Source: Ulva prolifera
Lineage: Eukaryota; Chlorophyta; Ulvophyceae; Ulvales; Ulvaceae
Length of the DNA stretch: 64,000 nt
NCBI GenBank assembly: GCA_023078555.1
Contig: CM041197.1
Location: 5,353,810 to 5,417,809 of the forward strand
Direction of reading: 5' to 3'
Shown: piece after piece, positions 12,383-46,839 of the stretch
Layout: every line of letters begins with the position of its first letter
Numbering within the stretch: the first letter of the stretch is position 1
Position numbers and translations under genes: made by a program
The notes under the pieces: model-generated
Databases searched by the model: none
What the model saw: the letters and a program-made list of their open reading frames with translations, nothing else
What the model was told of the DNA's origin: nothing

Positions 12383-12425
<43 letters not shown>

Positions 12426-18273: not shown

Positions 18274-18311
<38 letters not shown>

Positions 18312-18965
18312 TGCACACCGACGGACACGACGGCCTCGGGCACGGCGACGACGCCCCAGCTGAGCTCGGACTTGTGGATCAGCCCGCTCGCGGTGCGGCC
18401 GTCAGCGAGCGCGACATCAACAAACACCCCGTACCCCTCGATCCACGACACCTTGCCCTGCACACAGCCGGCGCGGTCCCTGTTATAGCAGGCATATGCC
18501 CCCTGACAGTATCGCCGGGTCAGCATGTAGCCAGCAATTCGCAGCCGCTCTATGTTGCCCGGTACGGTGCGTTTCGGGCGCGGCTGTTCAGAGGTACAGC
18601 TGGCCACATGTGCGCAGGTGTGTAGGCATGCATGATTATATAGCAGTACCCACTAGAACACAGACAGTTTTGCATTCGGGACATGTGAATTGGGGGAGTG
18701 ATACGAGTGCTCAGCGATGACCCCCATGTGCAGTACCAGATGAACAGCGCGCACCGGCGCGTAGCGATGAGGGGAGGGGGGGGAGGGGGGGGCACCTCGA
18801 CGACGGAGCCGACTTGGATGGTCTTGAGGAGCTCGGCCTGCAGCAGCTGCCGCTGCGACAGGATCATGCGGTTCTGCAGCTCGTCGACCTCCACAAACAG
18901 CGCGCGCACCTTCATGCCCTCCTCAGGCCGTCCTGACGGCGACACCATGCTGTTCGGGATGAATC
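16728..18965 (-). CDS. S1-domain RNA-binding protein (RLSB/PDE338/SRRP1-like), 5' part not found
   Basis: Likely a chloroplast protein that binds RNA through S1 (OB-fold) domains; the land-plant relatives act on plastid transcripts. Exons seen, all in phase: 18965-18796, 18457-18319, 17554-17415, 17051-16728. The first holds the end of one S1 domain (FIPNSMV, then VRALFVEVDELQNRMILS). A second S1 domain is built across three exons: GSVVE-GKVSWIEGYGVFVDV, GLIHKSELSW, then VSVG-EWVKCKVTDVDPPRGRISLSL. The C-terminal exon matches the family tail: VSQELELWLGG, then YDMVARSGSTIQEMALE. The frame enters exon 18965 in phase 1 from an upstream exon that should end in Gly. I could not find that exon, any N-terminal S1 repeat or a transit peptide between 18.97 and 20.3 kb. 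Two of the introns open with C-rich tracts. Confidence 0.8.
18274..18310. repeat. Poly-G (poly-C in sense of S1 gene), 37 nt, at intron start
   Basis: On the coding (minus) strand the exon ends at 18319 and the intron reads GTGTGCAT followed by 37 C. The tract thus begins at intron position 9. Confidence 0.93.
18771..18792. repeat. Impure poly-G (poly-C in sense) at intron start
   Basis: On the minus strand the exon ends GTCGAG at 18796 and the intron reads GTGCCCCCCCTCCCCCCCCT. The tract is C-rich with two interruptions and begins at intron position 4. It looks like an interrupted version of the pure runs. Confidence 0.9.
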
Positions 18966-20484
18966 CTGCACACCGCCGCGCAGTCATGCCGAGATGACGT
19001 GGCGCATGATCGCGGTTGCGAGGAGGGAGGTGTAAGTGGCTTTGGGGGCCGCAGGGTGAGTGCGGCGTGGCACACAGCAGGGTGCTTAGGGTCCACCCAT
19101 TTCGCCTTCTGAAGGGATACAAAGACGATGTGAGCGGCTACTTGTGAAGACGATGCGAGCGGCCTGTGGTTTAATGCCCAGCGGAGCGCAGTGGCAAATA
19201 GAAGGTGTGGGCTTGGATGAAGAGCTGTTGCCAGGCGTGGCCAGATCCGCACATGGCCGGCTGCAAGTGTGTGCACTTGCAGCAATCAGATGGAGATTTC
19301 AATACATAAAAGTGCTGAGCACATGTCCTGGCGATTAACCATACGCAACTGCTACGTTTGTTGTGCTGGAGGTGGCACGAGCGGCTGCTGCACAAAAGCC
19401 AGAAGGCCACAATGCGCAATCAGATCATTGGAATTTGTGGCACCCACGACAAACCCTTTTACCAGTGTAGTGAGTTGATATGGCGAATCGTGGAGCTTGC
19501 CGCCTGCACGTATCTGGAGGATCTATGATGATTGCGCACCGCTCGTACCCCAGCAATCTACGAGAACTCCACCCCGGTTCACCCCGCGAACCACGCCTTC
19601 AAATACTTCCCCAGATTCATACAGTGTCCTTGCTCGTTGCCAGGCATCTACGGACTGGCCCGCACTGGACGCACAGCATGAAACATGCCTTGTGGTCAGC
19701 GGACGGATAGATGGGCTACACTCCAGTTTCGGCCATCTGCACGCTCATTGTAGCTGCGTTTATACATTTTTGAGTCAGTTAGTGCACATGACTTGCGCCC
19801 AGGCGTCGCCAGCTCGAGCGTACCTGTTGTGTGCTTGGCAGCCACGCATCATCGAGGTTTGACGACCATGAGCCTGAACACATCGGCATGTCATCGACAG
19901 TCAGCGCATGAGCATAATCTTGCAGCCAAAACAATCTTGAACGCACCTTGCAGCATGGAAGCTGCGCAGAGCGCAGGTTAGATGCAGCTCTCATCCACGC
20001 CCGGTCGCAGATCAGGAGCAAGTGAGCACAGTGATGCGTAGGCCTTCAAAATATCGTGAACGGGTGTTTTGTACCTTCTTGATCAGGTCCGCCCGCACGT
20101 GGTTGGGCCGGACATTTGTGTTGCACACTGCACAGGGGATAGCGGAAGAAATGTGAAAATTGTAGCACTTGGTGGTCAGCTGCATGAAATGGCGACGCCA
20201 TCTGTTGATACATGTTTACACTGGTGCTTGCAAGCATCCAGAAGGCACGCACGCTGCGCGAAGCCGGCTGTACGTTGACCTGGCGCTCCTCTGACACCTG
20301 TGGCCACTAATGCACTGTCACCACATCTTCGCCGTTTACGGTGCATTTAACTCCGAGCTCGTCCACTGCCGTGCCAGATCCTGGTGTGGGAGCATGAAGG
20401 AATACCTTCCTTACCACATCATACCTGACACACGCTTGACTCATGCAGCAGCTCCACCATCAGCTGACTGCGACCGTTCCTTGA

Positions 20485-20545
20485 CATCATTCGGCGTATT
20501 TCCTGGTGCACTGTGCACATCATTCGGCGTATTTCCTGGTGCACT
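20485..20545. repeat. Direct tandem repeat, 33-bp period, ~1.85 copies
   Basis: CATCATTCGGCGTATTTCCT begins at 20485 and again at 20518; the match ends at 20545. Confidence 0.88.
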
Positions 20546-22284
20546 CCATGGAGCTAGCTATGGCAACATGCCAGGCCACTCCAAGCACACGATCAGCCCC
20601 GCAGGAACTCTTGCAGCGATTTGTGGATAAGCTCTTTTTCAGATGGGCGGGACAGGTTCAGGCCACGGCCCAGGATTCATGATAGTGAGCCATCATGATG
20701 ATCTATCAACTCACAGCAGAGGATGCCCATGGCACCTGCTCTCAGCTGCTTACAAGCTGTGGATTCGACCCCAACCTGTCCGACAATGACAAACACAGCT
20801 AGGTACGTTGCACTGTAGGTTGCTCAGACTTGCCGACAGCACAACACTTACACTTACACTGCCAAGCACAATACCACTACAAACCAGGAGTCCTGCCCCA
20901 TGCCATGCACCTCAGCAGAACTAGGTGCCACAGCTGCACTACGTGTGCTGCAGCTGTCTTGGCATCTGTGCAGCTCAGGAGGCCCCCCCAAGTGCCACAC
21001 CTGTCCATCTGAGCTGCTCTGGAATCGTGTACAAAACCGACATGCCCGCTTCCGGGGCACACAGGGCTAAACCGCCGGGTGTCTCAAACCACACCATCGC
21101 CCACTCTATCGGCGATGTACCATTGATTCTACGCTATTCCTGCGGCAACAGTGGCGAATCTGCAGGGGCACCGAGCAGTGCCGCGTGATAGTACTGCGAG
21201 TGTGGTGACTGCCATGGGGCGCTGCCTGCTGTTGTCCTAGGCCTAAGCTCTCATGAACACACAGCAGCCACCGCCAGCATCCAGAAGCACCACCTGCCAA
21301 GCCCATGGCATTGGGCTGTTGTTGATGGCAACGTGCTGTAGTTTCTGCTGGTGCTCTGCCAGCCAATGGTCCGAGCGTTTGAAATATGCTTACCACCCGC
21401 CAACCCCATGTGGAGAGCCCCGACCTGGTTCAGCTGCTCTGGTCCTGCCTGGCCTAGGATGATCACCTCAAGATGATGGCAGGCATGTAGCCTCGGGTCA
21501 TCAGCAAGCATGCTGTCCTCGACGCGATCTCGCCCCGCATGCCCCACATTGATATGAGTGCACAAACGCGAGATGCTGTCCAGCCAGAGCGGGATGGCAT
21601 GCGTAACAATGCGAGATCATGTGTGTGAATGGCTGGCCAACGTTCCATGTCAACTCAGACGACGATCATCATGCGGCTAAGCGAGGCACTGGTCCTGAAA
21701 TCCAGTGAAACGGCCCAATGTCTCAACATCTGGGATTCTTCCTGGTGACCGGGGCAGACTCCAAACGGCGACCAACGGTCTAACAGGCATACTTACACCA
21801 GTGGTCACACGTGTCTGTTCTGCTGTTACGAATATATTTGCCCGAATATCCTGTGCCAGGTGTGTACGCAAGTGGTCAGGCCCACCTGCTGTGCTCTTTG
21901 ACTGACATCGATCCGCCGCTCACCTGTGCACCGCAGCTGCAGCCCTACCAGCCCCAACACCTGCGCAAATTGGAACCGAAAACTGCTGCAGTCATGCTTG
22001 CGCCAGAGCTCCAGTGGAGCAGATACTGCATGTGCATGGACTTGCTGCAACACTCCGACAATGTGAAGACCCAGTTGGCCTTCCTGTCCTACCGCCGCTG
22101 GACCCTGCATCCAATGACAACACGTCCTAGATTCCAGCATGCCATCGTCCGTCGGCATGGTCTCTCGAGGACAGGTTGAGAAGGCTGGGATGCTGCGACC
22201 AGGGATCTCACAGCATGAAGGGATCAACACCTGGAACTCACCAGTCTGCGAAACTCGAGATTTTGCTGACACGATGTGCTTCTG

Positions 22285-22376
22285 AGTTGGGGAACCTGAG
22301 GAGTCCAGAGCTACAACTCAAATCACAGGCCATCAAAATGGCCAACACAGCTCTAGACTCCTCAAGTTCCCCAACT
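22285..22376. repeat. Foldback hairpin: 28-bp arms, 36-nt loop
   Basis: The left arm (22285-22312, starts AGTTGGGGAACCTGAGGAGT) and the right arm (22349-22376) pair over 28 bp with two mismatches. The loop contains its own small hairpin, GGCCAT-CAAA-ATGGCC. No terminal direct repeats or transposase were seen. It could be a miniature inverted-repeat element or a small-RNA precursor. Confidence 0.85.
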
Positions 22377-24865
22377 AGTGGCCCAACATGTGTTGGGGTG
22401 TGACGATCAGCAAGTGAGAGATATACGACTGGGAAAAGCTTTGCTGATATCGTTGAAGGTATATGTGCGCTGCTGAGCGTAGCGTCACCTTGTTTTCATG
22501 GTTTTGCAAGGATCGGGCTGGCAGGCACGGCACTCGGGTCTGCATCTCAATCTACCGACTGCGCACAGGCAGCCAGAATGGCCGTATCAGCATGTATGGG
22601 CTCGACGAGGATTGGCTTTTCCATCACAAGATTTGTCTGGAGCCATCCAGATGTAAACAAATTCGGGCGATACCCATCCAGCGCTGCTTTGCCGTTTACA
22701 TGCCAGTCCCAGCTGACAAGTTTATCCACTGTAAAGAAGAAGAAGACTCAAGAGCATGTTATGTTCAATGGTCTATGCTCAACGATCTGCTTCACGTAGC
22801 CATGTACGTGAAACTGCAGACAGGCGACCGTTCTCAGCAGCAACCTTAGAAACCCACATTTCGTCGTGTCCAGGACTGTCGTCCCTCATGGCGTACGCGT
22901 TCGGCTAGAAAGGCCGGCCTTGACCACTGCGGCTCGATGTGAGTCGACCGACCGCTCCAATACGTAAGAACGTAGAATCGTGCATAGCACACATATCTGA
23001 ATTGGATGCAACGTGGACGTTGTGAAAGTACTTTGTGTTCGCATTGTGAATGGTGAGGATGAGTGTGCAGTGTGCACTGGTGCAGGATAAGAAGGAAGGG
23101 GGGAACATGCAACGAATACTTCACCTGCTTGACCTGTCATCAATGCATGGGCAAACAGCTCCAAGCATGCATCTTACGCTGCTGTATACTTGTATGACCC
23201 GATGTGGGTCACGTTTCCCGCGACCCCATCTTTTGTAGCGACCTGACCTGCAAGCTGGGGCTGCATCCCCACGCAAACATGCAGACATGATTTGCCAGCA
23301 ACCTTCCCTTTACCCTTTGCCAGAATTAAACGCCGTCCTGTGGCGGTGAACATACACGACGCAACTTTCCGATGCACTTGTCATCGGCAGCAGCCAGCGT
23401 CAGGCTGACTGTGCCCTGACGTCGGATCAGACAAGCGCTCAAACCCTTGCAGCGCGCTGCTATACAGACTGCATGTAAGGACGTGCAACACAAGTTGCTG
23501 CATGGGTCACGCCATGGTGCACCATCGGCTCCGCCACGGCGCGCGTGGGAATGGGTGGCGCGCTGTACGCAAACCATCAGCTGACTGGTCAGTGCTTACT
23601 TGCCCACTCGTTGTTCAAGCAGCATCCCTATTTGTCGGAGCAGTGCCATGTATCATGTGTCTGAGACAAGATAGCAACGGGCACATCGCGGTGTCCACTT
23701 CCTGAATTGGGTGGCTGCACGAGGAAACGAGACACCCAACGCATATGGTTGACGGGCCAAGGCTGCCAGTGACCGCAGCTTGTGAGAACGACCACCGCAA
23801 GGGCTTCCGCGCGGTCTTCTGCCTTCAAGTCGGCAGCTTTTTTTGCCTAGCTTCCTGTGATCAGATTAGTTGCGTTGCAAGGCTGCTGCACAATTCCATG
23901 TAAAAAGTGCCTCAGACGCTGGACTTCGTAGTATCCATCCTCCGCGCTGCGACGCATCAATGAAATCGGCACATATTGTGTCACCACAGGACGAACTGCT
24001 AAGGTTTGACCGGAAATGCACGTCCCAGGGCAACAGCGCGGCATTAGACCCGGCATACAGGGGTCTTGTAGTACACAACTCGGACCTGGCCAGGTATGGC
24101 TTAGAACTTGCTTATTTGCCTCGGAATGTGCTCGTATCTGATGCAGTGTTGCAGACGTAAAGGTGCAGGTCGGGAACGTACCTTTTCACACACTTCGGGA
24201 GGCAGTACTGCCCGAGCTGAGGCCATGTCGGCAGTGCCAACGACGCTGTCGAAGCATTTGCAAAGTATCGGCAGCTCTAGAAGAGAATCTTTCTCTGCAG
24301 CATCCAGTGCTCACAAAGTGCGTAACTGGCTGTACTTCTGACGTGGCAATGGCGTGGCGCGCATTCGGTGGTGCTGACGTGACCCGCTCATTGTCTGCAA
24401 AGACTGCTGTATGTCCGAGTAGCCGACGGCGTGTGTAATATGTCACTTTGTGTTGCTGTCGGGCGGTCTTGAGTGCAGTAGTGACAGCCGGCCTGCCTGG
24501 GATCGTCCACCTGCGTCCCAAGGCCAGCTCCCGGTAGCACTCCGTGATGTCATAAACGCCAACTGATATTTGGTGTGCAATTCTCGCTGGGCTGTAGTTG
24601 CGTTGTTGCGCGATCGATTGTGCCCAGGCTCCAGGTGTATTCCTGACGTTGTGTTCGCGGTCCGCGACTGAAACTTTGCAGCGTGTGTATCACAATAACT
24701 CCCTACGTGAGTCGTTAACGTGTCAAACTTGGCTATCAAGTGAAGAGGTGTAGGTTATTGCTTGCCAAACGTTCCGGCAGTCACGAGCGCCGATCAATTC
24801 GAAGTGCTGCGATTGAAGAACATCAGCTTCTTCTTTTCCACCCATGAGTGGTGCCGGGACTTTCG

Positions 24866-27767
24866 ATGAGCACACGCCCGACCTTGTGGTGCAGGCATAA
24901 GGATGCACTGAAGCAAATCAAGGAATCCAGCCCCAGGCAAAATACCAAAGCATGGAATCTCCTTGACTTGCAACAACAGAATGAAGAGAGTCTTTGTAAG
25001 AGTTCATCGGCATCAGATCTGTCTCAGCAAGGCCGCAGGAATGCAGACTGTCCCGTTTTTGTCATGCTCCCATTGGGCACCGTCCTTGGCATGAGGCATG
25101 ATGAAGTGTTCGTATGTGATGCTCAGAAAGGTCAAGAAGAGGCCTTAGCGTTGGCTTTGGACAAGCTCGCGTCGGCAAAGGTGAAGGTGTGAAACCCCCT
25201 GCTGTTGTTGTTTTTCAGGTCTCTCTCTGACCAGGACTTTTCCATGGTTCTCTCTAAAACCACCTGTTATCAGATATTATCAACTCACCACATGCAGATC
25301 GCTAATGATGGCGTTGTGCAGCCTGCCCAACACCAGGCCACATGTAGCACGTAGGCTAGCAGATCCAGTGGGTACCGTCGTATAGTTATCAGTAGTTAGT
25401 TTGCTCGACCGGACGAGGCAAGCACCAAGCATGCAAATCTGCATCGATGTTCACTTGACTTGTGCAACCGATTCAGTCTCGCATGCGTGTTGCAGGGAGT
25501 CATGGTGGACGTATGGTGGGGGATTGCAGAAAGAGATGCTCCTGGCGAATACGATTTCCGCGGCTACCGCACCCTGTTCAACCGGGTTCGGGAGGCAGGC
25601 CTAGAGGTCCAGGCAGTCATGTCATTCCACGCAGCGGGCACGAATGTCGGAGACACCTGCACGATATCCCTGCCGCAGTGGGTGCTTGCTGCTGGAGAGC
25701 ACGACCCCGACATATTCTACACGGACGCTGGCGACCCAGCTGCAGGCACTCCCGCGTATCGAAATCGAGAGTGCCTCAGTGCCGGATGCCTACAGGAGCC
25801 GGTGCTGTGCGGGCGCTCCCCGTTGCAGGTGCTACCCCGTGCCGACAATCTCTCACCGCTGCACGCTCACAATGTCATCACACTGTAAATCAATCGCCAC
25901 CTCACGCTATGTACCGCCCCAACGCAAGCCTGCTTCTTCAGCTGTGGCACCTCAGTGTAGCTGTCCGCATTCGTCAGGTGCTGCATGATTGGGTGTTCAA
26001 TGTGCCAGCTGGAAGGAAGTCGCGGAGAGTGCAGGCGTACACCGACTTCGTGTCTGCGTTCTTAGACTCGTTTGATGACATGGTGGGCGATGTCATCTCG
26101 GAAATCACACTCGGCTGCGGCCCGGCAGGGGAGCTCCGGTACCCTGCGTACCCAGAGGGCGACGGCCGGTGGCGCTTCCCGGGCACCGGCGCGTTCCAGT
26201 GCTACGACAAATACATGCTCGCGTCGCTGCGGCAGGCGGCCCTCGACCACGGCAAGCCCGCATGGTACGCACACCTCCGGCCACGTTGGTTGCTCTGTTG
26301 CTGCGATCGGTGTGCTCCTGAACGGTTGCCCAAGCTCCACATTGGGTCTACCCACCTGCTGTTTTCGTTGCGCCAATGCATGGCGTGTATGGCTTCCTGA
26401 CACGTACAGAATCTGATGCGGGAGTGCAGGGGGGAGTGGGGTCCGCACGACGCGCCGCGCTACAACGACCGCCACTGGGACACCGTCTTTTTCAACAACA
26501 ACGGCCGCTGGCGGGAGCCGTACGGCGAGTTTTTCCTTGCGTGGTACTCGCAGCTGCTGATCGACCACGCCGACGCGATCCTGTCAAGCGTCGGCCCGAT
26601 GATCCGCCGCCGCTGCACCGGCATCGTCCTTGACTCCGTCGACTCGGTGCGGACCCCATACGCCAGACCCCGCACCTGCCCTGCCCCTCCGGCGTTCCCC
26701 GCTGCTGCGCCCCGGCATCATGTGCAGTGTGCAGACGGTGTGTGCAAGGTTGCTATGACGAGGGGCGATAATGTCTATTTTTTTTTCCTTCGAGATGTGC
26801 CTGCACTAATGCGGCCACTGTGATCGGCACCCTGGGCGGCGACACCGTTCCTGCCATCCTGCGAGCTTATGGAACGGCCGACTGTTTGGAGACGCGCGCC
26901 ACATGCATCCCCCACGTGTGCTGAGAGGTGGATGTGCGGTCCAGGCGGTGGCGGAGGGCGCGCAGGCACCCGGCGGCGCCGGCGAGGAGCGGCTGTACCG
27001 CTTTGCCCCACGGCACGCCAAGGTCAAGCTCGGCATCAAGCTCGCAGGCGTGCACTGGTGCAGCAAGAGCCTCGGGCACGCCGCGGAGAACACGGCGGGG
27101 TACTACCACACCGCGAAGCACAACGGCTACGCGCCGATCATGGCGATGCTGGCGCGGCACGGCGCGCACGCGAGCTTCACGTGTGTCGAGATGCGCGACT
27201 GCGAGCACCCGAACGAGGGCGCCTGCGGCCCGGAGGACCTCCTGGAGCTCGTGCTCGACACCGCGGCGCAGCACGGGGTGCCCGTCACCGGCGAGAACGC
27301 GCTGCAGCGGTGCGCCCCCGCCCCAGTTCTGTCTGCAGCGCCGCGTGACCGATCCGGTCTGCGGGGCACTGCCGACAGGCGTGCTGTTGAGGGTGACTTG
27401 ACGGGCTGCGGTGCCTGCATGCATTGATGCCGCGATGTCCTGTGCTGCTGTACCCTGGCCGATTTCTGCGTTCGAGCGCATTGTAGGAAATTGGCATGCA
27501 GCGCGCTCTGTTGTACACTACTTTGAATTGTGCTTTGACTCACGTTTCGCTGATTCCTGCTGGTGTGGCACGCTCTTGCTGACGCAGGCAGGCCCGTGTA
27601 GGTACGACAAGTACGCATTTGACCGCATGTACCAAAGCGCTGTGGGTGCGAGCGCTGCCAGGGGCAAACTAGCGCAGCTCACCTTCCTACGTATGGGAAA
27701 CCGCTTCCTGGACAACTGGGATGCGTTCAACGCATTCATGGCACGCATGCGCGGTGACGAGGCCTGA
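24866..27767 (+). CDS. BAM: Beta-amylase (EC 3.2.1.2)
   Basis: Glycoside hydrolase family 14; releases maltose from the non-reducing ends of starch glucans, in algae and plants usually in the plastid. Exons: 24866-25186, 25496-25828, 26035-26264, 26430 to about 26645, 26945-27309, 27602-27767. Junctions 1-3 and 5 are phase-checked; the fourth donor is the least sure. Landmarks in order: CPVFVMLPLGTV, GVMVDVWWGIAERD, the flexible loop FHAAGTNVGD (usually HQCGGNVGD), LPQWVL, GPAGELRYPAYP with the acid catalyst (soybean Glu186), WGPHDAPRYN, LGIKLAGVHWCSKS, and TGENALQRYD with the base catalyst (Glu380). Both catalytic Glu are present, so the enzyme should be active. The about 60 residues before CPVFVML are rich in Lys, Gln and Ser and may be a plastid transit peptide. 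The first in-frame ATG was taken. Confidence 0.93.
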
Positions 27768-29516
27768 GTATTCGTCAGGCAGGCGTGGTGTGTGACAGAG
27801 GCGGGAGTGGCATTTGCAGGGGGCGGGTGTGGTGCAGGGCTATTGTGCCCTGAACTGGGGAATCATGAGCGGAGATGACTTCTTGAATCAGGCATCGGCG
27901 CCGTTGGGTTGTGTGTGTATGTGTGCGAGTGTGTGCGTGTGTGAGGTCGCGGGTATGAGACATGTCGCCCCGTGGGTTTGGTTCAGTGACGCTCCGTTGC
28001 CAGGGCAACACTGTCGGGGGCAATGCTTGCGGTTATGTAGGGGGCCTCTCGGTCCGTGTGGCGCCTGGGGTAGCAATCTGGGCTGCACGGCGTGACTGTG
28101 CGTGCAGAGTGTCGCCCAGCTGGTAGCAGCCGCCTTAATTTCCCCTGTGCGCGGGCATGAATTTCCTGTGCGCGGGCTGTGCTCTGCTGCAGTCCTGGGC
28201 GTCGCGGGGTGGGACGGGCGGAAGGGTCGAGGTGTATCGACCATCTAGATGTTTGTGGAGAGACGGAGTGTGCATGTGAGGAATCGTTCGGCCTAAAGTT
28301 GCCATTGTGCCGGCAGCTACGTCAAGTGCGCCTACCCAGTAGAGTGTGCATCAATTTGCTCCACGAATGAGCCTGCTTGTTTTCATCAAGGTATGATGCA
28401 ACAGCTCGGGATAATTGTAAGCTCAGAGAGTACAGACAGCAGCCTTGGTGACTACAGAAAATTCCACCCAGGTTGTCCCATGTGTATTGTTGAGGTGTGC
28501 ATGTTGCTGTCCGTGTTCTCAGATTCACAGTTTGCCATCATTGTGAGTGTTGCAAATGAACCTCTGGTATGTCTAGGCAAGCACTGCCCTGGTCGATGCT
28601 GTTCACGTCGGGAGGTGGTCAGACGGTTCCATTCAAGGTTGTAACGAGTGTGAAACTGAAGTCGACTGTGCAGAGCCATTGGGTGTTGGCAGCAGGTGTG
28701 AACTAGAATGTGATGGCACGAGGTTGAGCTCTGGTGGACGGGATCAACGGCGGTGACAATGTAGTTCCGCTGGGTGGATGCTGCTGATGGGCTTGGTGAT
28801 CGCGAATTCGGAAAGTTGGTTTGTCTGCACGCGGAAAGAATCGGCGTTCCCATGTTCACAGCAAACCATCAAAAACGTACCTACTTCCGTCAGTGTCGTG
28901 TTGAAGCGCCGCGATGCATGTTTCCGCCTGTGCACCTTGTACTATCGGGTGGTGTCATGGTCAGGATGTTAAGGCGCACTGGCACTGCACCTGCGACACT
29001 TGCACGGCGGTGCTGCACCCAAGTAGTCCAAGCCTGGGAGTACTCGGACTCATACGAATTGGGACATGATCACCGTTCAGACATGATCACAAGCAAGAGC
29101 AGGACGGCTGCCTTTGATCGCCCTGCGCAGTTCAGTAGTCCCAGTAGCCCTGTCGCCCACTGCATCCTGCGCGGGCTTGCTGGCAGTGCGTTGCGGCGTA
29201 CGTTGTGGGTGCACTGTGACACATTCACGACAGCATTTACTTGCACTTGACATGATTGCGTGTTCTCGGCTACGATTGTCTTTGGCGTTTCAGAATCCGG
29301 GCAAGGCAGCATTTCCCGGACGATCCATCGGCCCGGGGCTGTGCACGGACTCCTACCGAACGGTAAAGTCCGCATCTTCCTCCAACCCTGAGAGCATGAT
29401 ACTCAACGCTCTGTCTACGAGTATGCGGATTTCGTGATGGCTCTTGAACATCAGAAGGGCATTGCCTGCAGAGGCTGCCTCACAATAGCAGTTTCAGGGG
29501 ACAGTCAAGGCGAAAC
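27768..29516. other. Intergenic, no gene recognised
   Basis: About 1.7 kb between two + strand genes. It starts with a GT-rich stretch (27.9-28.0 kb) that fits a 3' UTR of the beta-amylase gene. Nothing else is recognisable. Confidence 0.5.
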
Positions 29517-30039
29517 ATGAGCGAGGCTGTCCAAGCCACATCCTCAGGAGACGCGGGAACTGATCCAATTGTACAGTATATCGTCTTGCGCAGAGACTTG
29601 TGGGCAGAGCAAGGCTGGCCATTGGGCCCCCTCATCGCACAAGCATGCCACGCCAGCGTAGCCGCTCTGTGGCTGTCGAAGAACGACCCAGACTCGCAGC
29701 AGTATGTGTCAGAGGATCAACTTGACAGCATGCACAAGGTCTGACGCCGTCACTCGACTTTGAGCTCCGGCATTGGAATCCACAGGCCTGGACCTGCATC
29801 ATCAAGTGTACATCTCGACATCACTCTAGTCGCACGCTGTGCAGGTAGTACTGGAGTGCAAGGGAGAGACCCAGCTCCGGAATCTTGCCGCAAAGCTGAC
29901 GGATGCTGGCGTGCCGCATAAGATGTGGGTTGAGCAGCCTGAGGGCTACCCAACAGCCCTTGCCACGAAGCCATGCCGGAAGTCAACAGTAGCAAATTAT
30001 TTCAAGAAATTGAAGCTCTGCAAAGGGAACCTGTCATAG
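29517..30039 (+). CDS. PTRHD1: PTRHD1-type peptidyl-tRNA hydrolase (PTH2 superfamily)
   Basis: Two exons in phase, 29517-29738 and 29845-30039, encode 138 aa, the usual size of PTRHD1 proteins. After a 17-residue leader comes PIVQYIVLRRDLWAEQGWPL, then the PTH2 hallmark GPLIAQACHASVAALW, and in exon 2 VVLECKGETQLRNLAAKL followed by GVPHKMWVEQPEGYPTAL and TKPCRKS near the end. PTH2 enzymes release peptides from peptidyl-tRNA in the cytosol; whether PTRHD1 members do so is uncertain. The intron is 106 nt with donor AAG|GTCTGA and acceptor GTGCAG. The basic tail FKKLKLCKGNLS ends at TAG. Start: the only ATG before the conserved region. Confidence 0.92.
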
Positions 30040-36882: not shown

Positions 36883-39800
36883 ATGGCGTCGTCAGAGCAG
36901 CTGTTTTCTCAGACAGATGCATGCCGAATCAGAGCCATCGAAGACAGGATACACAAACACTTCAAAGATCCAAGTGAACGACGCCGGATGATCGAATTGT
37001 TTACCGAGATGCCATGTGCGGAATATACTCGTCTGCTGATGGCAAGTGATGCAGCATTTGAGGATGTGCTCCTGGCAGGTGGGTCATCGTTCTTCCTAGC
37101 TTCCCCAATCGCAATTGACTACTTCACAGACACTTGCGCAGTGAGAGCACACATGTGTGTACTGTAGGTTCCGTCGAACGCTTCAAACCACAGCTCAAAA
37201 GCGTCTGCAGCGATGTGGATTACATCGACATGATCACTTTGCTTGCTGAGATGTCACGCCAAGATCGCAAACAGCTGCAGCACGGAACAGGTGAGGAGGT
37301 CAAGCAAATTCTCGGCAAGCGGCTTCGAGATGGATCGTCAGGTATGTTTTCATGTCCTGGCCGTGCGACAAGCCACTGACTGTTCCAGAAATCACTGCTG
37401 CAACGGCAGCCACAATCTAACATCACATGCCCTTGCCATATCCAGCGTAGCAGCATACAAGGGCCACTCCAGCATCCTTGCCGCTTTCTTGGATCGGTAC
37501 CCGCACAGCGAGTGAGTACGTTGCCATTCAAGTTCACACAACATATGTTGCGACATTATGCGCATGATAGCACATTGCAAATTCCAACACCCATGCTTCG
37601 CCCAAGCAGCCGAATGCCTGTGTCTGCTTTCATCACCTATGAAGGCATGGCGCGGTCGCGTGTGTGCTTGCAGCGTACGTCTCTGTCCTTGTCCATGTCT
37701 GCATGAAGGCAGAGTGGCCCTCTCGAATAATGCTGTGCTGTGCCACTGTGTGCACCTGCGCCACCGCAGACCCATCACACATTTCTGGGGGCAGTTTTGG
37801 CCATCTTCGGTCTCACTGCATGTCAACAGCATATGCTCACGCCGCAAGCCTTATGGTAGCATGTGCTCTGGCGCAGGCCCTGCTCAGGATACACTTTGTC
37901 AGGTGCATGGATTTGAGGTAACGCTGGTTGTGGCATGTGTTGAGTGCTGAGCAGCCTTCATGCGCAGGGGCAAGAGCTGCAGTCGAGCGAGACATGCATC
38001 TGTTTGAAGCCTTAACACTCCTCCAGATGGAGACTGTCAATGCGGCAGACCCGCACTGGCATGCCGACAAGGACTTCCAAACATGGTTCAATGATGTCTC
38101 TCAGGCTTGCATTCCCGTGTCGCATGCGTTCTACAACCAGCTTCAAAATCCTGCACTGAAGCGGAGCCTGCAAGCTGTCAAGTGTCTGGATATCACAGTA
38201 ATTACAGACGGCATGCTCCTACAAGGTGGCTTTCTGGCACGTGAGGGAGACACAGAGGTGGGTGTCACTGTCATTATGCAACAGCTGTTCCACAAGTGGT
38301 TTCGACTTTTAGATGATGCTGATCCCAATCGTCGACCGCTCAATGTCAGGGCTAATGGGCGGGAGACGATTATAAGCGGTACCAGCAGCCAGCTGTCTAC
38401 ATTTCGTGACCGCCCTGACACCATTTATCAAGATCGATCTACCATGGCTGTGATTGGCTTGGGTGAAGAGAAGTCAGCTTCTTTGGCCGGCGACGAGTGC
38501 CGGCGGCAGCTGCAGCGTTATTCTGGGCAGATGACAAAAGCTCGCCATGGCAGCGCCGGCTTCCGCATGGCCTACGCTGCAGCAGATCACAATATCGAGT
38601 TCTTGAAGCTTCCTACTGGGGCACGCTCCTGGCTGGGCACAGTTTTTGCTCTCGTGAAGTATCATCACAAGTCTTTCTGCCGTGCGTCATGAACACGTTA
38701 CCTTTGGCGCGTCTCATCATCACGCCACGTCACACCTCATGCCGATTTGCACAATACGGCCTGTGTCACTCGTTATGTCCGCTCTCCTGTGTGCCAGAAG
38801 CAAGCCGCTGTTATGTTTGTTGAAACCTCTCTCGTTTGATTTGACCAGGGTAGACATATCATTGCAGTGGTCCTGGACCCGTTCACTATGTCGCAGGGAG
38901 CTCCTGCTGTCCCGTTGACACGTGTGCTGGACCTCGAGCAACTTCAGGACAGAATACAAGCTATGCTGTTGGTGACCAAGTTTTTGACAGCTCTTCGGTA
39001 TCTGCAAATGACAGCAGAAGAGGGCTCAGAGTATGTGCGGCTTGGAACGGAGTACGAACGCCCACATCACACCAAGCTGGAGGTCGAAGATGTCACTATG
39101 AAGAAGACCATCAAGCTTTTTTCTGGTACGTTGCTGATCCTTTGGGTCTGAGGCATGTCTGCCTGCGGATGCCACTGCAGCATTGATGCAAGTGCTGACC
39201 ATATATGTTGCGCTAACACATGTTGCGTCTCGTTGTTCAGCCCGCACAGAAGCGCCGCAGGTCCCTGGCCTGGCACAAACATAAGTATGTCAAGTATTTT
39301 TGGTGGGGACTGACATTGCAGCCCGGTCACACAATCAATTTGGCAGGTTTGAGTGTTTTGTCTTGAAGTCATTGTACATCTCTGTGCCATGAAGCCAGAA
39401 AGCTGTGTGCAGTGTGTTGATGTCGGGCATGTGATTTATGCAACTGTGTCATTTCTTTCCCAGCTTTAAGCAGTTGCACGCTATTTAAGTGCTGACTCTG
39501 TGCTGTTCTAGTCATCTCACAGTATGCTTGCAGAGTTTCAGAACCATCACTGTGTGAAGTTCGACAATGTCAAGGCCGCCTACAAAGTTGCTCAGAAGCC
39601 CCACAACCGGTATCACCTCGTGCCAGCTGCAGGCGGCCCGAGTCTCCAGTCTGACAATTATGTAGTCCACACAGTTCTAGGGCGTCCAGTTCAGTGGGAC
39701 ACAGAGTACATCAGCCCCAAGGTGTGATGGCCGGCGACTCTAGAACACGATCGACAGCCCCTGTGCGGCAGAGCTGTCACAATGGCGAGCAGCACACTGT

Positions 39801-40397
39801 CGTGTGGACTTGTCATGCCGTAGTGCACAAGGAAGTCTGTGTGTGCTTGGCTTTGATGCTTGCACATGTAGGTCACCAGTCAGGCTTGCAGTGCTTGCGT
39901 CGTTGCTTCCAAGCTCTACTTCCGTGCGGCTGCAGGTGGTGCGGGCTGTTGCACATGATGTGGCGCTGGCCTGCAGCCTCCTTGAGGCTGCAGAACTTGC
40001 ACATACCGATGTCCGGCTGGAAAACATCGTGCACGCTCCAAAGCACACCCAAGAAAAGCCAAAGTTCATGCTGGTGGACTTGGAAACGGTTCGCCGCGTG
40101 GGCGACACCCTGGCGACAGAATATGTTGATGGCCATAAGGCCCTAGGCGTAGTGAAGGGCGTTGGTTTACAGCAAAGGGATGGCGAAGGTATACTCAGCT
40201 GGGTGGTGAAGAAAAATGTCGACAGCGCTCAGCTGGTGGTGGTGTTGCGCACACTTCTGGACCGGATGGCTAACGATGACGGCGAGCTGGCAAAGGCCTT
40301 GAGGGACCTGCTGAATGCAGATGACAGTATGCATCAGATTTCGGCAATCAGTCCTCAGCAGGTCGTGAAATGCATCGAACGCTTGCCTCAGCGCTAG
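36883..40397 (+). CDS. PD-(D/E)XK nuclease-like plus protein-kinase-like fusion (Crinkler/CR-type architecture)
   Basis: Multi-exon gene. Well-supported exons: 36883-37078, 37168-37341, 37968-38653, 38849-39125, 39534-39721, 39936-40397. Phases agree for exons 1-2 and for the last four; one or more small exons between 37.34 and 37.97 kb are unresolved. The N-terminus is a charged helical region (EDRIHKHFKDPSERRRMIEL, LLAEMSRQDRKQLQ). The 686-nt exon holds a restriction-endonuclease-like motif: RPD at about 38412, then GLGEEK about 15 residues on, fitting PD...ExK. The last four exons form a kinase-like domain: GRHIIAVVLDP, then HTDVRLENIV (HxD...N catalytic loop, His codon 40002-40004) and FMLVDLE in place of DFG. 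REase-kinase fusions of this type are known from Crinkler (CRN)/CR effector-like proteins; membership is inferred from architecture. Cell location and target are unknown. Confidence 0.65.
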
Positions 40398-40779
40398 ATC
40401 CTTTTGGTGGAGGTGCGGCTGCTTGAGGCATATCGTGTGATCTGGAAAAGACGATGTGCATTCCATTCCAACGTTATCTGGACTCTCACACAAAATCTCT
40501 TCGTTGTTCCCATATTCTACGCCAGCAGTGTCTAGCACCTTGCACTGAGAATGTCTTCTGGTTGACAGTCTGCAGCAGACTGTCTGCCATCATGTGTAGT
40601 CATGCAGATGACCATGAAGCCCTTCCTGAACTGCATGTACAATCACAACATGTTCACAGCCATGGCTGCAGTCGTGTCTGCCTGACTGGAGCAGCAACTG
40701 CTGGGTTGGGTGTTGTGTGCTGTGATTAGGAGCAACGTTGCGAACAGGCAGAGGCGGGTTGTGACACAGGCGTTCAACC

Positions 40780-43770
40780 CGCCCTCTCATTCATGACCAT
40801 CTAGTCGCCATTGACCTCAGCCCAGCAGGTGCTTGCTAAGATGTGTGACACAAGATGTCATGTAGGTGCACTCGTGTAGGCACTCGTGTAGGCGCCGCCG
40901 CCCTGGCACAAGACCCTGCTCCTATTGTAGCCACGCAGTTAGCGGCTCCCGCAGCCGAAGCTGTGCCAGTAGAGACGGCAGCAGTACCTCCTCCTGATGC
41001 AACTGCAGCCAGCTCGCTCGGACGTGCCTGGGGCGTATACGGTAACAACCAAGAATCTGGCGAGACGATGTGCTGCCGGGGGTCAGCCACTTTCAAGGCA
41101 AGTGCACGGTGTCGGTGAGGGAGCACTACCAGGAGGATGGTGCTTGGACGCTGGATATGAAGAGATTCAGTCTGACGCCAGAGCAATTCAGCACTCTCTG
41201 TAGCAAACAGCAGGTTTGAAATTGGCTGCCGCAGTTGCCTGCCTCCGCAGTGCATGTACTGCCCACATGGCTCACTTGGCAGATGCTGAACTGCCACGTG
41301 TCTTGATTGGCGTTCCAGCATTCTGGGAATGCTGTGTCGCTGCCTGTTGCTTATTCTGTTCAACAGGTATGCGATGGACTCGATTTCTGTTTCTCTGCGT
41401 GGCCATCGTCCCTGACAGCACACCTGTCATTGGATGTCACTGGCAAAGCTGGGGCCATGCTTGGCAGTCTGGCTGAACGGGGCTTACATCTCAACTTGCA
41501 GGTCCTTGTGCCCGCGCAGTGCAAGTCAGTGCTACACATGTGACATGCGTGTGCAGGAAGTTTGCCAAAGCAGTGGCTGCGAAGGACTTCGCCATGGAAA
41601 TTTGACATGGTTTCAGGAGCAAGGTTTGTTCAGCCACGAATGATTGGGGGCAGGGGACCAGCAAGACGCCATGGGAACGGCATCAGGCTGTCTGCAGATG
41701 AATGGGGAAAGCTAGCGGCTGTGCTGCCTGCGATTCAGTCCGGCCTCAACTTTCAGCAGGTGGCTGTGCAACGTTTGTCGACTGCGAAGTCAATTGAAGA
41801 ATTTGCCGTACTGGAGCCACTGCTAGAGCTGTGTGTGGCAGGTGCCCGGTAAATTTTCGGTTACATGGAGCAGGCCACCTCCACATCCCTAGACAGTGGC
41901 ATGTACAGAGTTAAGGATCGTGCCAATGCTTGAAGCGCTGTGACAGGCGTAGCTGATGTAATATGCACCGACTTTCATGGTGCAAGGACTCAGGCTGTCA
42001 GAAAGCGAAGCTGGCCGCCCATGCATGTTCCTTGCCATAAAGTGTGCTCCTGGATGCGACCCTGACACTTGCGCTCAGAAGATACAGTCATCAAATGAAC
42101 AGGCGAGACAGATCGTGCTATGATACAATTCCTAGCTGGCGAGCTGCCACACTGTCGTTGAGTACGTCGAGACTGCTCCGAAAAGCATGCGGCAACCCAG
42201 ATATCACCCTGTACCTTGACTCCAGTGCTAGGACACATGTCATGAAGATGGACAAGTTCTTGCTTCTGCCATCGCGAGGCCCTTGTAGAGATGTATTTCA
42301 GGCCACCAGTGACAGCAGCACTGGGCGGCCGTGTGCCAGTGCTAGATGTGGCGTGGGTAGCCTGGCGACTTCCACTCGACTGTCCTCCACACATGGCCTG
42401 CCGCCTTGACCCCTTGATCCGCAGTTTGCCGCCATGCCCCCCACTGCAGGACAACGTGTATGTTGAGTCCAGTCACCCATAGTAACAGCCTCCCCTGCAC
42501 ATCCACGCAAACAGGCTGGGTCGGCACCAGAGGGTGGGTTTCGATCGTGCCTGAGAACCAAACAAACAAAGGGGCGGGCAAGCGGCTGGAGCAGAAGGAC
42601 GCAGAGGGCGGGCGCACGTGGAGGCGCCGGGGAACACAGCGTCTGCCGCTCTACTTGAGTTCATTGGCAAAGTCAGCGTTGTCGACAAAGACGATCTTGT
42701 AGCCGTCGGGGTCGGTGGTGGCGCAGATCTTGGTGCCGATGCCGGGCACCTCGAAGGCCTCCTTCGTGATCGTGCCCCCCGCGGCCTTGATTGCGTCGCA
42801 CGTCTTGTACACGTCCTCCGTGCCAATCGCGACCTGCATCTGAGGAGGCGTCTGGGTCCTATTGCGGGACGGAGGCACATCTCACTCTTTTGAGATTCAG
42901 AGTCTGCCGTCAGGGAAATGTATGTGCCGCCATGCAGTGCAAGTAGAGTGAAGGGCTTGGGCCTGCCATGCATTGGCATGGGCCCATGTGCTGAGTTCAA
43001 AGATGCTGTTGCTAATGGTCAGAGTTGTGAGGGCATGGCGGGTGGCGTGGAAGGGCCTGATGCCATGTACGGCCTCGCAGCGAGACCTCATAGCCAGGGG
43101 ACCGGGGCCTCGATGGTTCTCGCCAGCACGGTCACACATCTGGAAGGCGGCTGGTCCTGTCGCCGCCTGGGACTGCGACCTCGTGGCCACCTACCCCAGG
43201 TGGCCAGGGACCAGACAGCAGCAGGCTGGACTTGGCAGGTCTGGCTGCACGGAACGCAGGGGCCAGAGGTGGCCAAAGCCGCTCCAGCGTGCGAGGACAA
43301 CCGCTTGTTGCAACGACCCCCAAGACATGCGCTGCAGAACATCGCAGCCGAACGGTGATAGTCGTGTTGGCGTGCAGGCGTGGCTTGGTGTCATCGCAGC
43401 TGAGTCATGCATGGCCCATCAGGCAGAATGCCCGCAACACGGGCTGGGCAATCCGAACCCGCAGATGCGCTTGAGGGTACTCGGAGTGCGTGCAGCGTCA
43501 GGCAGGCGGCTGTCTGAATGGGGCAGCTTCGGCGGCACGTCGGGCGGGGGCCGGACCTGGGCATAGGCGTCACCCTTCGAGTACCCGTCCTCCTTGCCCC
43601 AGTTGTACGTCAGCTCAAACACACAGTTGTCCTCCTGCACGCCACCGCCTGGCTCACACTCTGCACGCCACCGGCTCGCACTGTGCAAAGCTGTGCACGG
43701 CCGCTCACCAACCTCGCTGTTGTAAAGCGGCGCTGCCGGCACAACAGCGTCGCAGGCACACGGGCGATTG
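40780..43770. repeat. Segmental duplication, right copy (B)
   Basis: Direct copy of 32800-35560. The left border falls near the shared TCGCCATTGA-CTCAG stretch (40814 here, 32857 in copy A). The right border is past glyoxalase exon 6, before exon 5. Divergence is enough to leave many substitutions and indels, so the event is not recent. Confidence 0.82.
40836..41852 (+). pseudogene. Decayed copy of the PC4-repeat gene (exons 4-5)
   Basis: The start matches the Ala/Pro-rich exon 4 of the intact gene (AAALAQDPAPIVATQLAAPA against ITAALAQAPAPAVATEKPPP). The frame then breaks: the block equal to the GETMWWLGGSLE region is short by a few tens of bases and frameshifted, so the PC4 unit reads only in another frame and soon stops. 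The exon-5 equivalent (about 41.56-41.76 kb) has lost its frame by indel and meets a TGA near GAAATTTGAC, although GIRLSADEWGKLAAVLPAI is still legible. DEK_C and PC4 units 1-2 are absent. Not expected to make a PC4 protein. Confidence 0.85.
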
Positions 43771-44074
43771 CACCCCGGTGGTTTACAAGGGGGGGGTCCG
43801 TCAGCGGAGCGGCGCGGGCGCACCTCGGGGCCGTAGCTCATGAACGCCAGCGTGTACTTGTACTCTGCAGCCGCACCACTCGTATCTGAGCTTCTGACGA
43901 TGCGATAGACAATGACCGCGGACTGGATGCGGACATCAAACTCAGATGATCAAGCAGGAGCACGTGAGTCGATGCGAGCGCTGCCACTGTGGGAGGCTCA
44001 GATGTGCCTTTCCGGGGGTTGGAGCCTATGCTATTTGAGGGGGGCCAGGGGTAGTTCCGGCGCGTGTTGCTTGT

Positions 44075-44111
<37 letters not shown>

Positions 44112-44889
44112 CGCACCGGGGTTCTCGCGCTTGCGGAGGAGCTGCATGCCGATGCAGTCCTCGTAGTACTTGATCGACTTCTCGAGATCGCTCACCCGCA
44201 GCATCACCTGCACAACAACAGCATGCGCTTGCCCAGGCTGCCAGCAGCAGTCGGTCACGGAGCGCCTGCGCCGCTAAAGTCGGCGGGCGATGGCGGGTCG
44301 TGCTCTCACTGGTCTGCAGCAGCGCGGCAGGATCCGCGTGAACACCAACAACAGGACGAGTTGAGCCTGTTACGGACACAGCAAGGTACGAGACGTTTGG
44401 TTTTTATCCAGCCATCGATGGCGGAGGCGAGCTCGGGCGCCTTTGGCAAATCGCACTTCTGGTAAACTCGTGCTGCACCGTCGACAGCGGCTCGTGCCGC
44501 GATGTAGTACGTATGCATGTTTGTATGCATACTACATTGCGCATACTACATCGCGTATAGTATGCATACGTATGCATGTGTGTACGTAGTGCATTAGTAT
44601 TATAGGTAGAGCTGTGTCCAAGCGTGACAGGCCGCAAGGCCTGGTGTATAACAGGGTACGCCGATCGAACGGATATGCGAGTCGTTCGGGTTTGCAACAC
44701 GGGTGGCCCCGCAGGCCAGAGCGGCCCGCCAAGTGGTGACGCACGCCATCGCGCAATGGATCTCCCACAGCCACAGGTCTTCACGAGCACTCAGGCTTGT
44801 GGCAGCGCTGAAAGGCTGATCATTAAGCAGAACAGCGGGAGAAGGAATCTGTGGCACATCAGCAATCAGGTGCGGGCGCGCAGCCGCCG

Positions 44890-44925
<36 letters not shown>

Positions 44926-45212
44926 CTGCGCAAACGGCTCGGACGACTCTTTCTCACGCTGGATGAGCTCAAACTTGTACCCGGTGGGGTCCTCCACAAA
45001 CGCGATGTGCGTCTTGCCACCCTTCACCGGCCCCGGCTCCCTTGACACCTGTAGACACCAGCACGCACATGATTTTCCGCACCTGCCCTCGGTGCAGAGT
45101 TGCGGTGGTGGCCAACCCAAGCCGGAGCTCCGACGCACCACGAGCGACGACGAATCTGGGCGTCCGGGCCCACTGCTACACAAAATTGAATATACCAGTC
45201 GCAGCTATTGTA

Positions 45213-45248
<36 letters not shown>

Positions 45249-46839
45249 CTTGCCGCCGGCGGCGCGGACGCGGTCAACCATTGCGTACACGTCCGTCGTC
45301 GCGATGCCGAAGTGGCCGAAGCCCTCGCCGATGTCGTACGAGGAGACGCCATAGTTGTACGTCAGCTCGACGGCGAACTGCGAGTCCTCAGGGCCGTAGC
45401 CGAGGAAGACGTTGGTGTACTTGTCCTCCGGGATGTCGCGCCGCCGCGTCTCCTGCACGCCTGGACCGTTTTCACAGAAGTGCAAGAGGAAGGAGCCTCT
45501 CTGCCTACGAAAGCAGGCAAGATGTCCCTGTTTCTGACGAAGAATACGGAACAACACATGGACAGTGTATGACTCTACTACTGGAAGTGTGTAGGCAGAG
45601 GGGTTGCTGTTTCAGGGCAGCCCCCCTGACTAGATGTATGCTGAATTCTGTGAGCAACCCCTGCTTGCCACCGACTCTGTTGACCTGTACACAAGGCTAG
45701 GCTTGTGATCTGTCAAGCACGTGCCGGTGACGGACAGCCTGTGACAGTCTCTGCTAAGGTCACAGGTTGCGAGAGTGCCTCGTTGCAGGGTTGCAGGCCT
45801 AGGACTGCGGTGCCTGGGGCTGCCATGCATCCTGCTGGCCTGTGCATGTGTGCATGCATGACCACGCGTATGTTTCCCCACGACGCTGCTCTTTGATATG
45901 GGAACCTGTGATCGTGTCCAGATGTCGTAGTGCAGGGTGTTGTGGAGGAATTCTGTCAAGGGCACATGTGCGACTGTGAGCCGCCCAATTTGGTGTAAAT
46001 CAAGTCGACGACTTGTGGACTGGCCTGGTCGTTCGAGTGCCCTCCGCTTGAGAAGTGGCATCGCGGTCTCTACTTGCAGGTGCACCCCATGGGATCTACC
46101 TGCTCGCGTGTCAACGAGGGTATCACCAAGTAGGATGCTTTCAAGCAAGACAAGACGGCGCGGAATTCGTGCAAAAATGGGGCGTCATGAGGCTATCAGA
46201 GAGGAAGCTGCAGCAGCACTGGACGATGTCGAGGCTGAGCGCGGAGGATATTGAGTAGGTGTTGAAGAGGGTACACGGTGAAGCGGTGGAGGCCGGGGGA
46301 GATGATGCTGACCGGCAGACATGGTGCAGCTGCAAAATGCTCACACCTGTACTCTTATCTCTGAGACAGGCTGAACATGGCAACATCACTGGGTGATGAG
46401 AGTGGACTGGGGAGTTTTGGGGGAGACCTCTGCTTGTGTGATGTATGTCCATGAGAACGTGCCCCCTGGCTAGTGCTGGAGTTCAAGTGAACATGCGCAA
46501 CACGGAAAAATTACCGACTTGAGAGCTGCAAGGGACTGGTATACCATTGACCCCTCAGCTGCGAGTGGAGCCAGAGCAGCAGCAGGCAGCATGCAGGGTG
46601 GCTGCAACGCTTTCTGCACAGACCAGACAGAACAGAAACAAGTATATTTACACTGCAGTATTACAGTTTTTGTCCAGCGGCAGGATCGTGCAAGACTCGA
46701 GAGATGGTCACACCTTCATGCCAAGACACTTCGTGTAGAAATCCACCGTCGCGTCGAGATCACCGACGCGGTACACAGCATGCAGCATTCGACGTTTGTC
46801 CGCCTTCGTCCAGTCAGAAAGGTCGGCTGCCGCTGCCAT
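42651..46839 (-). CDS. GLX1: Glyoxalase I (lactoylglutathione lyase, EC 4.4.1.5), plant two-domain type
   Basis: Isomerises the methylglyoxal-glutathione hemithioacetal to S-lactoylglutathione. Seven exons, all junctions in phase: 46839-46714, 45452-45249, 45048-44926, 44207-44117, 43864-43824, 43634-43557, 42833-42651 (281 aa, normal for plant GLX1). Domain 1 keeps all four metal ligands known from E. coli GlxA: His in [12 protein letters not shown], Glu in [10 protein letters not shown], His in [14 protein letters not shown], Glu in [10 protein letters not shown]. Domain 2 repeats the fold ([46 protein letters not shown]) with weaker ligand conservation, as is usual. An in-frame ATG at 46899 would add 20 Arg-rich residues (RSRLRLDLVRGRARS) that could be an organelle targeting signal. 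Introns 2, 3 and 4 start with GTGC and 32-35 C. Exons 6-7 lie in duplication copy B. Confidence 0.96.
44077..44111. repeat. Poly-G (poly-C in sense), 35 nt, start of glyoxalase intron 4
   Basis: On the minus strand exon 4 ends AACCCCG at 44117 and the intron reads GTGCG followed by 35 C. The run starts at intron position 6. Confidence 0.95.
44523..44569. repeat. Inverted repeat, 12-bp arms, in glyoxalase intron 3
   Basis: GTATGCATACTA (44523-44534) pairs with TAGTATGCATAC (44558-44569), and the flanks are rich in further ATGCAT/TACGTA palindromes. A local AT-rich foldback. Confidence 0.8.
44891..44922. repeat. Poly-G (poly-C in sense), 32 nt, start of glyoxalase intron 3
   Basis: On the minus strand exon 3 ends TTTGCGCAG at 44926 and the intron reads GTG followed by 32 C. 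The run starts at intron position 4. Confidence 0.95.
45213..45245. repeat. Poly-G (poly-C in sense), 33 nt, start of glyoxalase intron 2
   Basis: On the minus strand exon 2 ends GGCGGCAAG at 45249 and the intron reads GTG followed by 33 C. The run starts at intron position 4. Confidence 0.95.

What the first reader, a model, noticed from the sequence alone, without database searches (positions are those of the whole stretch)
18274..45452. Long C tracts start 4-9 nt inside five introns of two genes
Read on the coding strand, introns of the S1 gene (donors at 18318 and 18795) and of the glyoxalase gene (donors at 45248, 44925 and 44116) open with GTG, GTGC, GTGCG or GTGTGCAT and run straight into C tracts: 37 pure, about 20 with two T interruptions, 33, 32 and 35 pure. 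Only one further long homopolymer was noticed in the window (12384-12424), and it sits by no recognised donor. Other introns of the same genes lack the tract. The splice sites were set by protein continuity and phase, not by the tracts, so the link is not circular. The tracts may be slippage expansions of a C-rich donor context (GTGCC), a mark of how these introns were gained, or binding sites for poly(C)-binding KH proteins. DNA of this kind can form G-quadruplex or i-motif structures, with poly-G on the template strand.
Basis: partly seen in the sequence, partly recalled or inferred. Interest (0 to 1): 0.78.

Follow-up and report, generated by a model that had tools for sequence, protein, structure and literature searches.

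The report
Poly-C tracts at algal intron starts
In what looks like a green-alga genome, long runs of the base C begin right after the signal that marks the start of an intron far more often than chance, probably because these introns begin C-rich and some of the runs then grow by DNA slippage.

Summary
All five tracts lie where stated; three glyoxalase and two S1-gene donors are fixed by protein continuity. The link is genome-wide: AGGTG followed by 18 or more C occurs 57 times against 1 for the reversed pattern, GGTGCG plus 16 C 34 against 1, while AGGT plus 18 G is not enriched (27 against 24). The genome is rich in poly-C: 2741 tracts of 20 or more C against 29 of poly-A. Of 30 tracts taken without regard to donors, 6 follow coding sequence and a donor within about 40 nt, roughly 25 times expectation; the other 24 do not. 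Introns without tracts also begin C-rich (C runs 4 to 6 times denser in the first 40 nt, G runs not), and intermediate runs of 8, 11 and 14 C occur at donors. Most likely the tracts are slippage expansions of a C-rich intron head, kept where poly-C, not poly-G, enters RNA. No shared insert was found. A splicing-enhancer role is open; no RNA data were available. Caenorhabditis G/C tracts are the nearest precedent, but without donor anchoring.

The parts
45213..45245 (-). C33 tract, starts at nt 4 of glyoxalase intron (donor at 45248, AAG|GTG)
   Evidence: junction fixed
45049..45248 (-). glyoxalase intron with tract; donor 45248, next exon starts 45048 (phase 0)
44891..44922 (-). C32 tract, starts at nt 4 of next glyoxalase intron (donor 44925, CAG|GTG)
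44208..44925 (-). glyoxalase intron with tract; next exon starts 44207 (phase 0)
44077..44111 (-). C35 tract, starts at nt 6 of third tract intron (donor 44116, CCCCG|GTGCG)
43865..44116 (-). glyoxalase intron with tract, 252 nt; next exon starts 43864 (phase 1)
44117..45458 (-). glyoxalase (two-domain lactoylglutathione lyase) exons used here: 45458-45249, 45048-44926, 44207-44117
18274..18310 (-). C37 tract, starts at nt 9 of S1-gene intron (donor 18318, TCG|GTGTGCAT)
17555..18318 (-). S1-gene intron with tract (764 nt in the model)
18771..18792 (-). impure tract C8 T C8 T C4, starts at nt 4 of S1-gene intron (donor 18795, GAG|GTG)
   Evidence: junction by homology; the model chose another donor
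18458..18795 (-). S1-gene intron with impure tract; next exon starts 18457 (GGC AAG)
   Evidence: read by eye; spliced peptide
12384..12424 (+). C41 tract with no strong coding signal beside it on either strand
   Evidence: scores 1.9, 1.9, 5.2, 3.3

Best explanation
The genome carries a strong, base-specific tendency for C/G homopolymers to grow by replication slippage once they pass roughly a dozen bases. Its introns begin with a C-rich head (consensus AG|GTGCGC, then C over G for some 40 nt), so the first bases after the donor hold a dense supply of sense-strand C-run seeds. Some seeds, above all GTGCCC donors, passed the threshold and ran to 18-44 C. They persist there because the tract lies outside the coding frame, leaves GT and the exon end intact, and puts poly-C, not poly-G, into RNA. 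Shown: placement, strand, base and length pattern, C-rich heads, intermediate lengths. Inferred: slippage as the process, the threshold, and tolerance as the reason for persistence. Why the heads are C-rich (splicing selection or mutation) is not settled.
For: Poly-C of 20 or more 2741 times against poly-A 29. Exact-length counts C8 3470, C14 204, C26 174: three points that fall and then flatten, as for runs that enter a slippage regime. In 73 introns without a head tract, C runs of 4 or more are 17.8 per kb at +3..+40 against 4.3 deeper in; 6 or more, 3.33 against 0.69 and 0.54 (9, 4 and 11 runs); G runs are not enriched there. C minus G skew +0.25 at +6..+20 (86 introns). Intermediate runs at donors: C8 20 cases against 2 reversed, C11 and C14 in loci chosen by coordinate alone. 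Donor plus poly-G not enriched. One pair of copies, 97% identical over about 1.2 kb, carries 32 and 22 C at the same place (not at a donor). U1 (5 hits, below Rfam's cut-off) and U6 (3 hits, above it) keep the usual 5' splice-site pairing parts, so no altered machinery is needed.
Against: The share of runs preceded by AGGTG rises from 20 of 3470 (C8) to about 53 of 2741 (C20 or more; 53 is scaled from 57 by 26 of 28 fetched loci), 3.4-fold, P 1e-6: donors do more than supply seeds, or other C8 runs are held short. Tract donors are more often GTGCC (5 of 16, listed by hand and including runs of 11, 14 and the impure one, against 5 of 97, P 0.005), losing the +5 G, which fits a compensating signal as well as a seed effect. 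Slippage was not observed directly; no second species or strain was available.
Confidence: 0.6

Rival explanations
1. The tract is a positive splicing signal: an intronic enhancer at the 5' splice site, bound by poly(C)-binding KH proteins, that lets weak donors lacking +5 G be used.
For: Donor anchoring and strand choice; AGGTG share rising with run length; GTGCC donors over-represented among tract introns, 5 of 16 against 5 of 97; predicted introns lack a polypyrimidine tract at the 3' end; C-rich enhancers act in two human introns with weak polypyrimidine tracts, and an hnRNP K site near a chicken 5' splice site is cited (PMC2481429, passages).
Against: Only some 1.6% of introns (range 0.6-3%) would carry a long tract by rough scaling; tract and non-tract introns sit in the same genes; 24 of 30 unselected tracts are elsewhere; no conservation or RNA data.
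Confidence: 0.2
2. The tract acts at DNA level: poly-G on the template strand forms G-quadruplexes that slow RNA polymerase or shape chromatin near exon ends, aiding co-transcriptional splicing.
For: C on the sense strand at donors; the same strand bias, 84 to 47, in Caenorhabditis genes (PMC2211496, passages).
Against: No structure or polymerase data; tracts of equal length lie where no coding signal was found.
Confidence: 0.1
3. The tracts came with intron gain: introner-like elements or repair inserts with a poly-C end.
For: Sharp start of the tract at the donor.
Against: No shared sequence in 600 nt on either side among 28 fetched donor tracts, 4 window donor tracts and the C41 tract, apart from two overlapping window stretches; 20 tract introns have ordinary lengths and acceptors; tracts of the same kind lie away from coding signal.
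Confidence: 0.04
4. Assembly artefact or mis-set donors.
For: Homopolymer lengths are error-prone in long-read assemblies (general knowledge); no RNA-seq was used.
Against: Eight tract donors in five conserved genes give alignments unbroken at the junctions; the donor link does not depend on exact lengths.
Confidence: 0.03

Closest known systems
Poly-G/poly-C tracts of Caenorhabditis (maintained by DOG-1), PMC2211496
   Same: Many mono-C/G tracts of 18 or more, almost all outside exons; C preferred on the coding strand within genes (G on non-coding strand 84 against 47).
   Different: There 396 tracts in about 100 Mb, location within introns reported as unbiased; here 2741 of 20 or more in 88.9 Mb and strong anchoring right after donors.
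C-rich intronic splicing enhancers (LCAT intron 4, GNPTG intron 2; hnRNP K site in chicken beta-tropomyosin), PMC2481429
   Same: C-rich intron elements in introns with weak polypyrimidine tracts; one cited case near the 5' splice site.
   Different: Those are runs of three to four C, shown by mutation; here 18-44 C, untested.
Tandem repeats in green-alga introns (Chlamydomonas, Volvox), PMC3887541
   Same: Repeats dense in introns and towards intron ends.
   Different: There mononucleotide repeats are very rare (0.94%) and Chlamydomonas favours GT/AC; here poly-C.

Membership tests
Caenorhabditis-type G/C tracts | Over-representation of long C/G runs | tested here: met
   2741 of 20 or more; poly-A 29
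Caenorhabditis-type G/C tracts | C on the coding strand preferred in genes | tested here: met
   donor + poly-C 57 against 1; donor + poly-G 27 against 24; coding scores
Caenorhabditis-type G/C tracts | No positional bias within introns | tested here: not met
   about 25-fold excess within 40 nt after donors, 6 of 30
Caenorhabditis-type G/C tracts | Dependence on a DOG-1/FANCJ-type helicase | not tested
   no search was made
C-rich intronic splicing enhancer | C-rich element near a splice site | tested here: met
C-rich intronic splicing enhancer | Loss of splicing on mutation | not testable with these tools
   needs minigenes
Introner elements | Sequence family shared among introns | tested here: not met
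   no non-self match apart from overlapping window stretches, 33 sequences
Introner elements | Target-site duplication | not tested
   not looked for
Homopolymer microsatellite | Length differs between close copies | tested here: met
   32 against 22 C in one 97%-identical pair; a single pair
Polypyrimidine tract | Pyrimidine run just before the acceptor | tested here: not met
   the tracts studied follow donors; predicted acceptors have G-rich upstream sequence

The most novel reading that the evidence does not exclude
This lineage marks intron starts with C: a C-rich head, in the extreme a pure poly-C tract of 18-44 nt, is read by poly(C)-binding proteins as part of the 5' splice site and substitutes for lost U1 pairing (the +5 G), with G-rich sequence marking the 3' end in place of a polypyrimidine tract. 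That would be a mirror image of the vertebrate G-run enhancers next to donors (the vertebrate part is recalled, from no call).
Probability: 0.2. Interest if true: 0.8.

Novelty: new variant of a known kind. Interest (0 to 1): 0.55.

Why it matters
It ties a mutational oddity (very long poly-C) to one fixed point of gene anatomy, the intron start, in conserved genes such as alanyl- and threonyl-tRNA synthetase and methionine synthase. It makes testable whether intron-head composition is a splicing signal or a mutational footprint, and warns that poly-C at donors can mislead gene prediction, since it reads as proline codons (as happened to the model here).

Tried and rejected
Intron-end pairing: introns start C-rich and end G-rich, so head-tail duplexes were tested. 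Against randomly swapped introns the native pairs were slightly stronger (mean -26.1 against -24.2, sd 0.8; reversed tails -24.5; 65 introns), but against introns of the same neighbourhood there was no difference (55 introns, P 0.82), and 20 tract introns have no more G in their tails than 65 others (0.32 against 0.35). Rejected as a specific mechanism.

Introner origin: rejected on lack of shared sequence. Altered U1 or U6: rejected, 5 U1 and 3 U6 hits look canonical (the U1 hits are below Rfam's cut-off).

A first count of neighbouring tracts used 26 loci; the right number is 28, redone with the same outcome.

Literature searches: (two were malformed and not run). No report of poly-C tracts anchored at donors appeared among the papers listed; the lists are capped (for example 20 of 307) and the library lacks most subscription papers. 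One paper search was left unused, and one genome search.

Host identity: assembly size 88.887 Mb matches the 88.9 Mb listed for Ulva prolifera ASM2307855v1 in PMC12526767 (table passage). Size alone; a lead, not an identification. The green-alga reading itself is an impression from composition and splice sites, not a test.
Full report
What was checked. The window holds five pure C/G tracts of 32-41 nt and one impure one; no other homopolymer exceeds 9 nt. Five of the six lie on the coding strand just inside introns of two genes. For glyoxalase, splicing at 45248, 44925 and 44116 gives a peptide that aligns to lactoylglutathione lyase chains at E 1.2e-89 with no gap at the junctions (one single-residue gap lies a few residues before the second). 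For the S1 gene, splicing at 18795 and 18318 gives S1-domain junctions unbroken in the best-scoring stretch (gaps lie elsewhere). The sixth, C41 at 12384, has no strong coding signal beside it.

The genome. The window lies in an 88.9 Mb, 44-contig genome. C runs of 20 or more number 2741 over both strands, A runs 29. Exact lengths: C8 3470, C14 204, C26 174, so over these three points the spectrum falls and then flattens.

Donor link. AGGTG + C18: 57 against 1 for the pattern read backwards. GGTGCG + C16: 34 against 1. AGGTG + exactly C8: 20 against 2. AGGT + G18: 27 against 24. The strand and the base are therefore specific. A search allowing 0-30 bases between donor and tract did not complete.

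Coding context. A codon model was started from 16 typed peptides (941 codons) and retrained on its own predictions; at donors it uses only GT and, after retraining, the last three exon bases. Scoring the 300 nt beside each tract: of 28 AGGTG tracts (the first 30 of 57; two lie in the window and were dropped), 19 have strong coding sense upstream, 4 antisense (each weaker than its own sense score), 1 sense downstream, 0 antisense downstream. Of 31 tract pieces in 30 loci taken as the first 30 of the 2741 without regard to donors, 6 have strong sense coding upstream (L036, L038, L040, L048, L050, L051), 1 antisense (weaker than its sense score), 5 sense downstream (in one of these, L041, the antisense score is far higher), 1 antisense downstream. 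Random window places: 32 of 400 upstream. The model itself calls a donor at five of these six; at L036 the donor rests on the coding score and a GTGCG motif. With 0.39 supported donors per kb, 0.8% of tracts would fall within 40 nt after a sense donor by chance; 6 of 30 is 25-fold (95% interval of the share 8-39%). The donor density comes partly from loci chosen for tracts, so it is rough. The other 24 loci show no such donor.

Homology outside the window. Alanyl-tRNA synthetase (L026), methionine synthase (L013) and threonyl-tRNA synthetase (L023) read through their tract introns with no gap at the junction. For L013 the model had set another donor and the junction is mine, from homology. That makes eight tract donors in five genes. 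The other fetched tract donors were not tested in this way.

Ordinary introns. Donor consensus is AG|GTGCG then C-rich; acceptor TGCAG|G with G-rich, not pyrimidine-rich, sequence before it. In 73 introns without a head tract, C runs of 4 or more are 17.8 per kb at +3..+40 against 4.3 deeper in; G runs 3.7 against 3.5-4.1. Skew (C-G)/(C+G): +0.25 at +6..+20, -0.11 at -20..-6 before the acceptor, 95% intervals excluding zero (86 introns). The skew reaches into exons: at fourfold sites C/(C+G) is 0.64 in the last ten codons before a donor and 0.40 in the first ten after an acceptor (tract and non-tract introns together, no interval computed). In 80 kb of places chosen by coordinate alone, 2 of 7 C/G runs of 9 or more sit at predicted donors, C11 in L071 and C14 in L074.

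Reading. Tracts look like the far tail of a C-rich intron head, lengthened by slippage. Against a purely passive account: the AGGTG share rises 3.4-fold from C8 to C20 or more (the 53 used there is scaled from 57), tract donors more often lack +5 G (5 of 16 against 5 of 97 are GTGCC; the 16 were listed by hand from earlier calls), and tracts gather around donor tracts (9 further runs of 15 or more in the flanks of 28 AGGTG loci against 1 in the flanks of 30 other loci, P 0.009; 9 against 2, P 0.03, if the second piece of L057 is counted). A splicing role is thus possible, not shown.

Prior knowledge. Caenorhabditis elegans has 396 tracts of 18 or more, mostly intergenic or intronic, unbiased within introns, G mostly on the non-coding strand (PMC2211496: abstract, passages and one section). 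C-rich enhancers are shown in two human introns (PMC2481429, passages). Mononucleotide repeats were reported very rare in two green algae (PMC3887541, passages). Daphnia has the highest poly-C repeat density among 12 genomes compared there (PMC3152781, passages).

Limits. No RNA data, no second species, no function test. Host: not identified; green-alga-like by impression and the size of Ulva prolifera.

Noticed in passing
introns and exons of window and loci L001-L076: C-skew peaks at donors and G-skew at acceptors, and reaches about 60 nt into exons at fourfold sites. Cause unknown; may be mutational, nucleosomal or splicing-related.
   Followed up: partly
acceptors of predicted introns: No polypyrimidine tract before TGCAG; the region is G-rich.
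   Followed up: no
L031 and L032: A duplicated, repeat-rich stretch (97% identical over about 1.2 kb) carries the same C tract at 32 and 22 nt.
   Followed up: partly
L057, centre: Two C runs, 19 and 32, separated by AA only.
   Followed up: no
L075, L076: Two 10-kb stretches chosen by coordinate have no coding signal in the model, so the genome may have gene-poor regions.
   Followed up: no
G000 C1, about 770950-771580: Several exact C8 runs spaced about 231 nt apart suggest a tandem repeat (listing).
   Followed up: no
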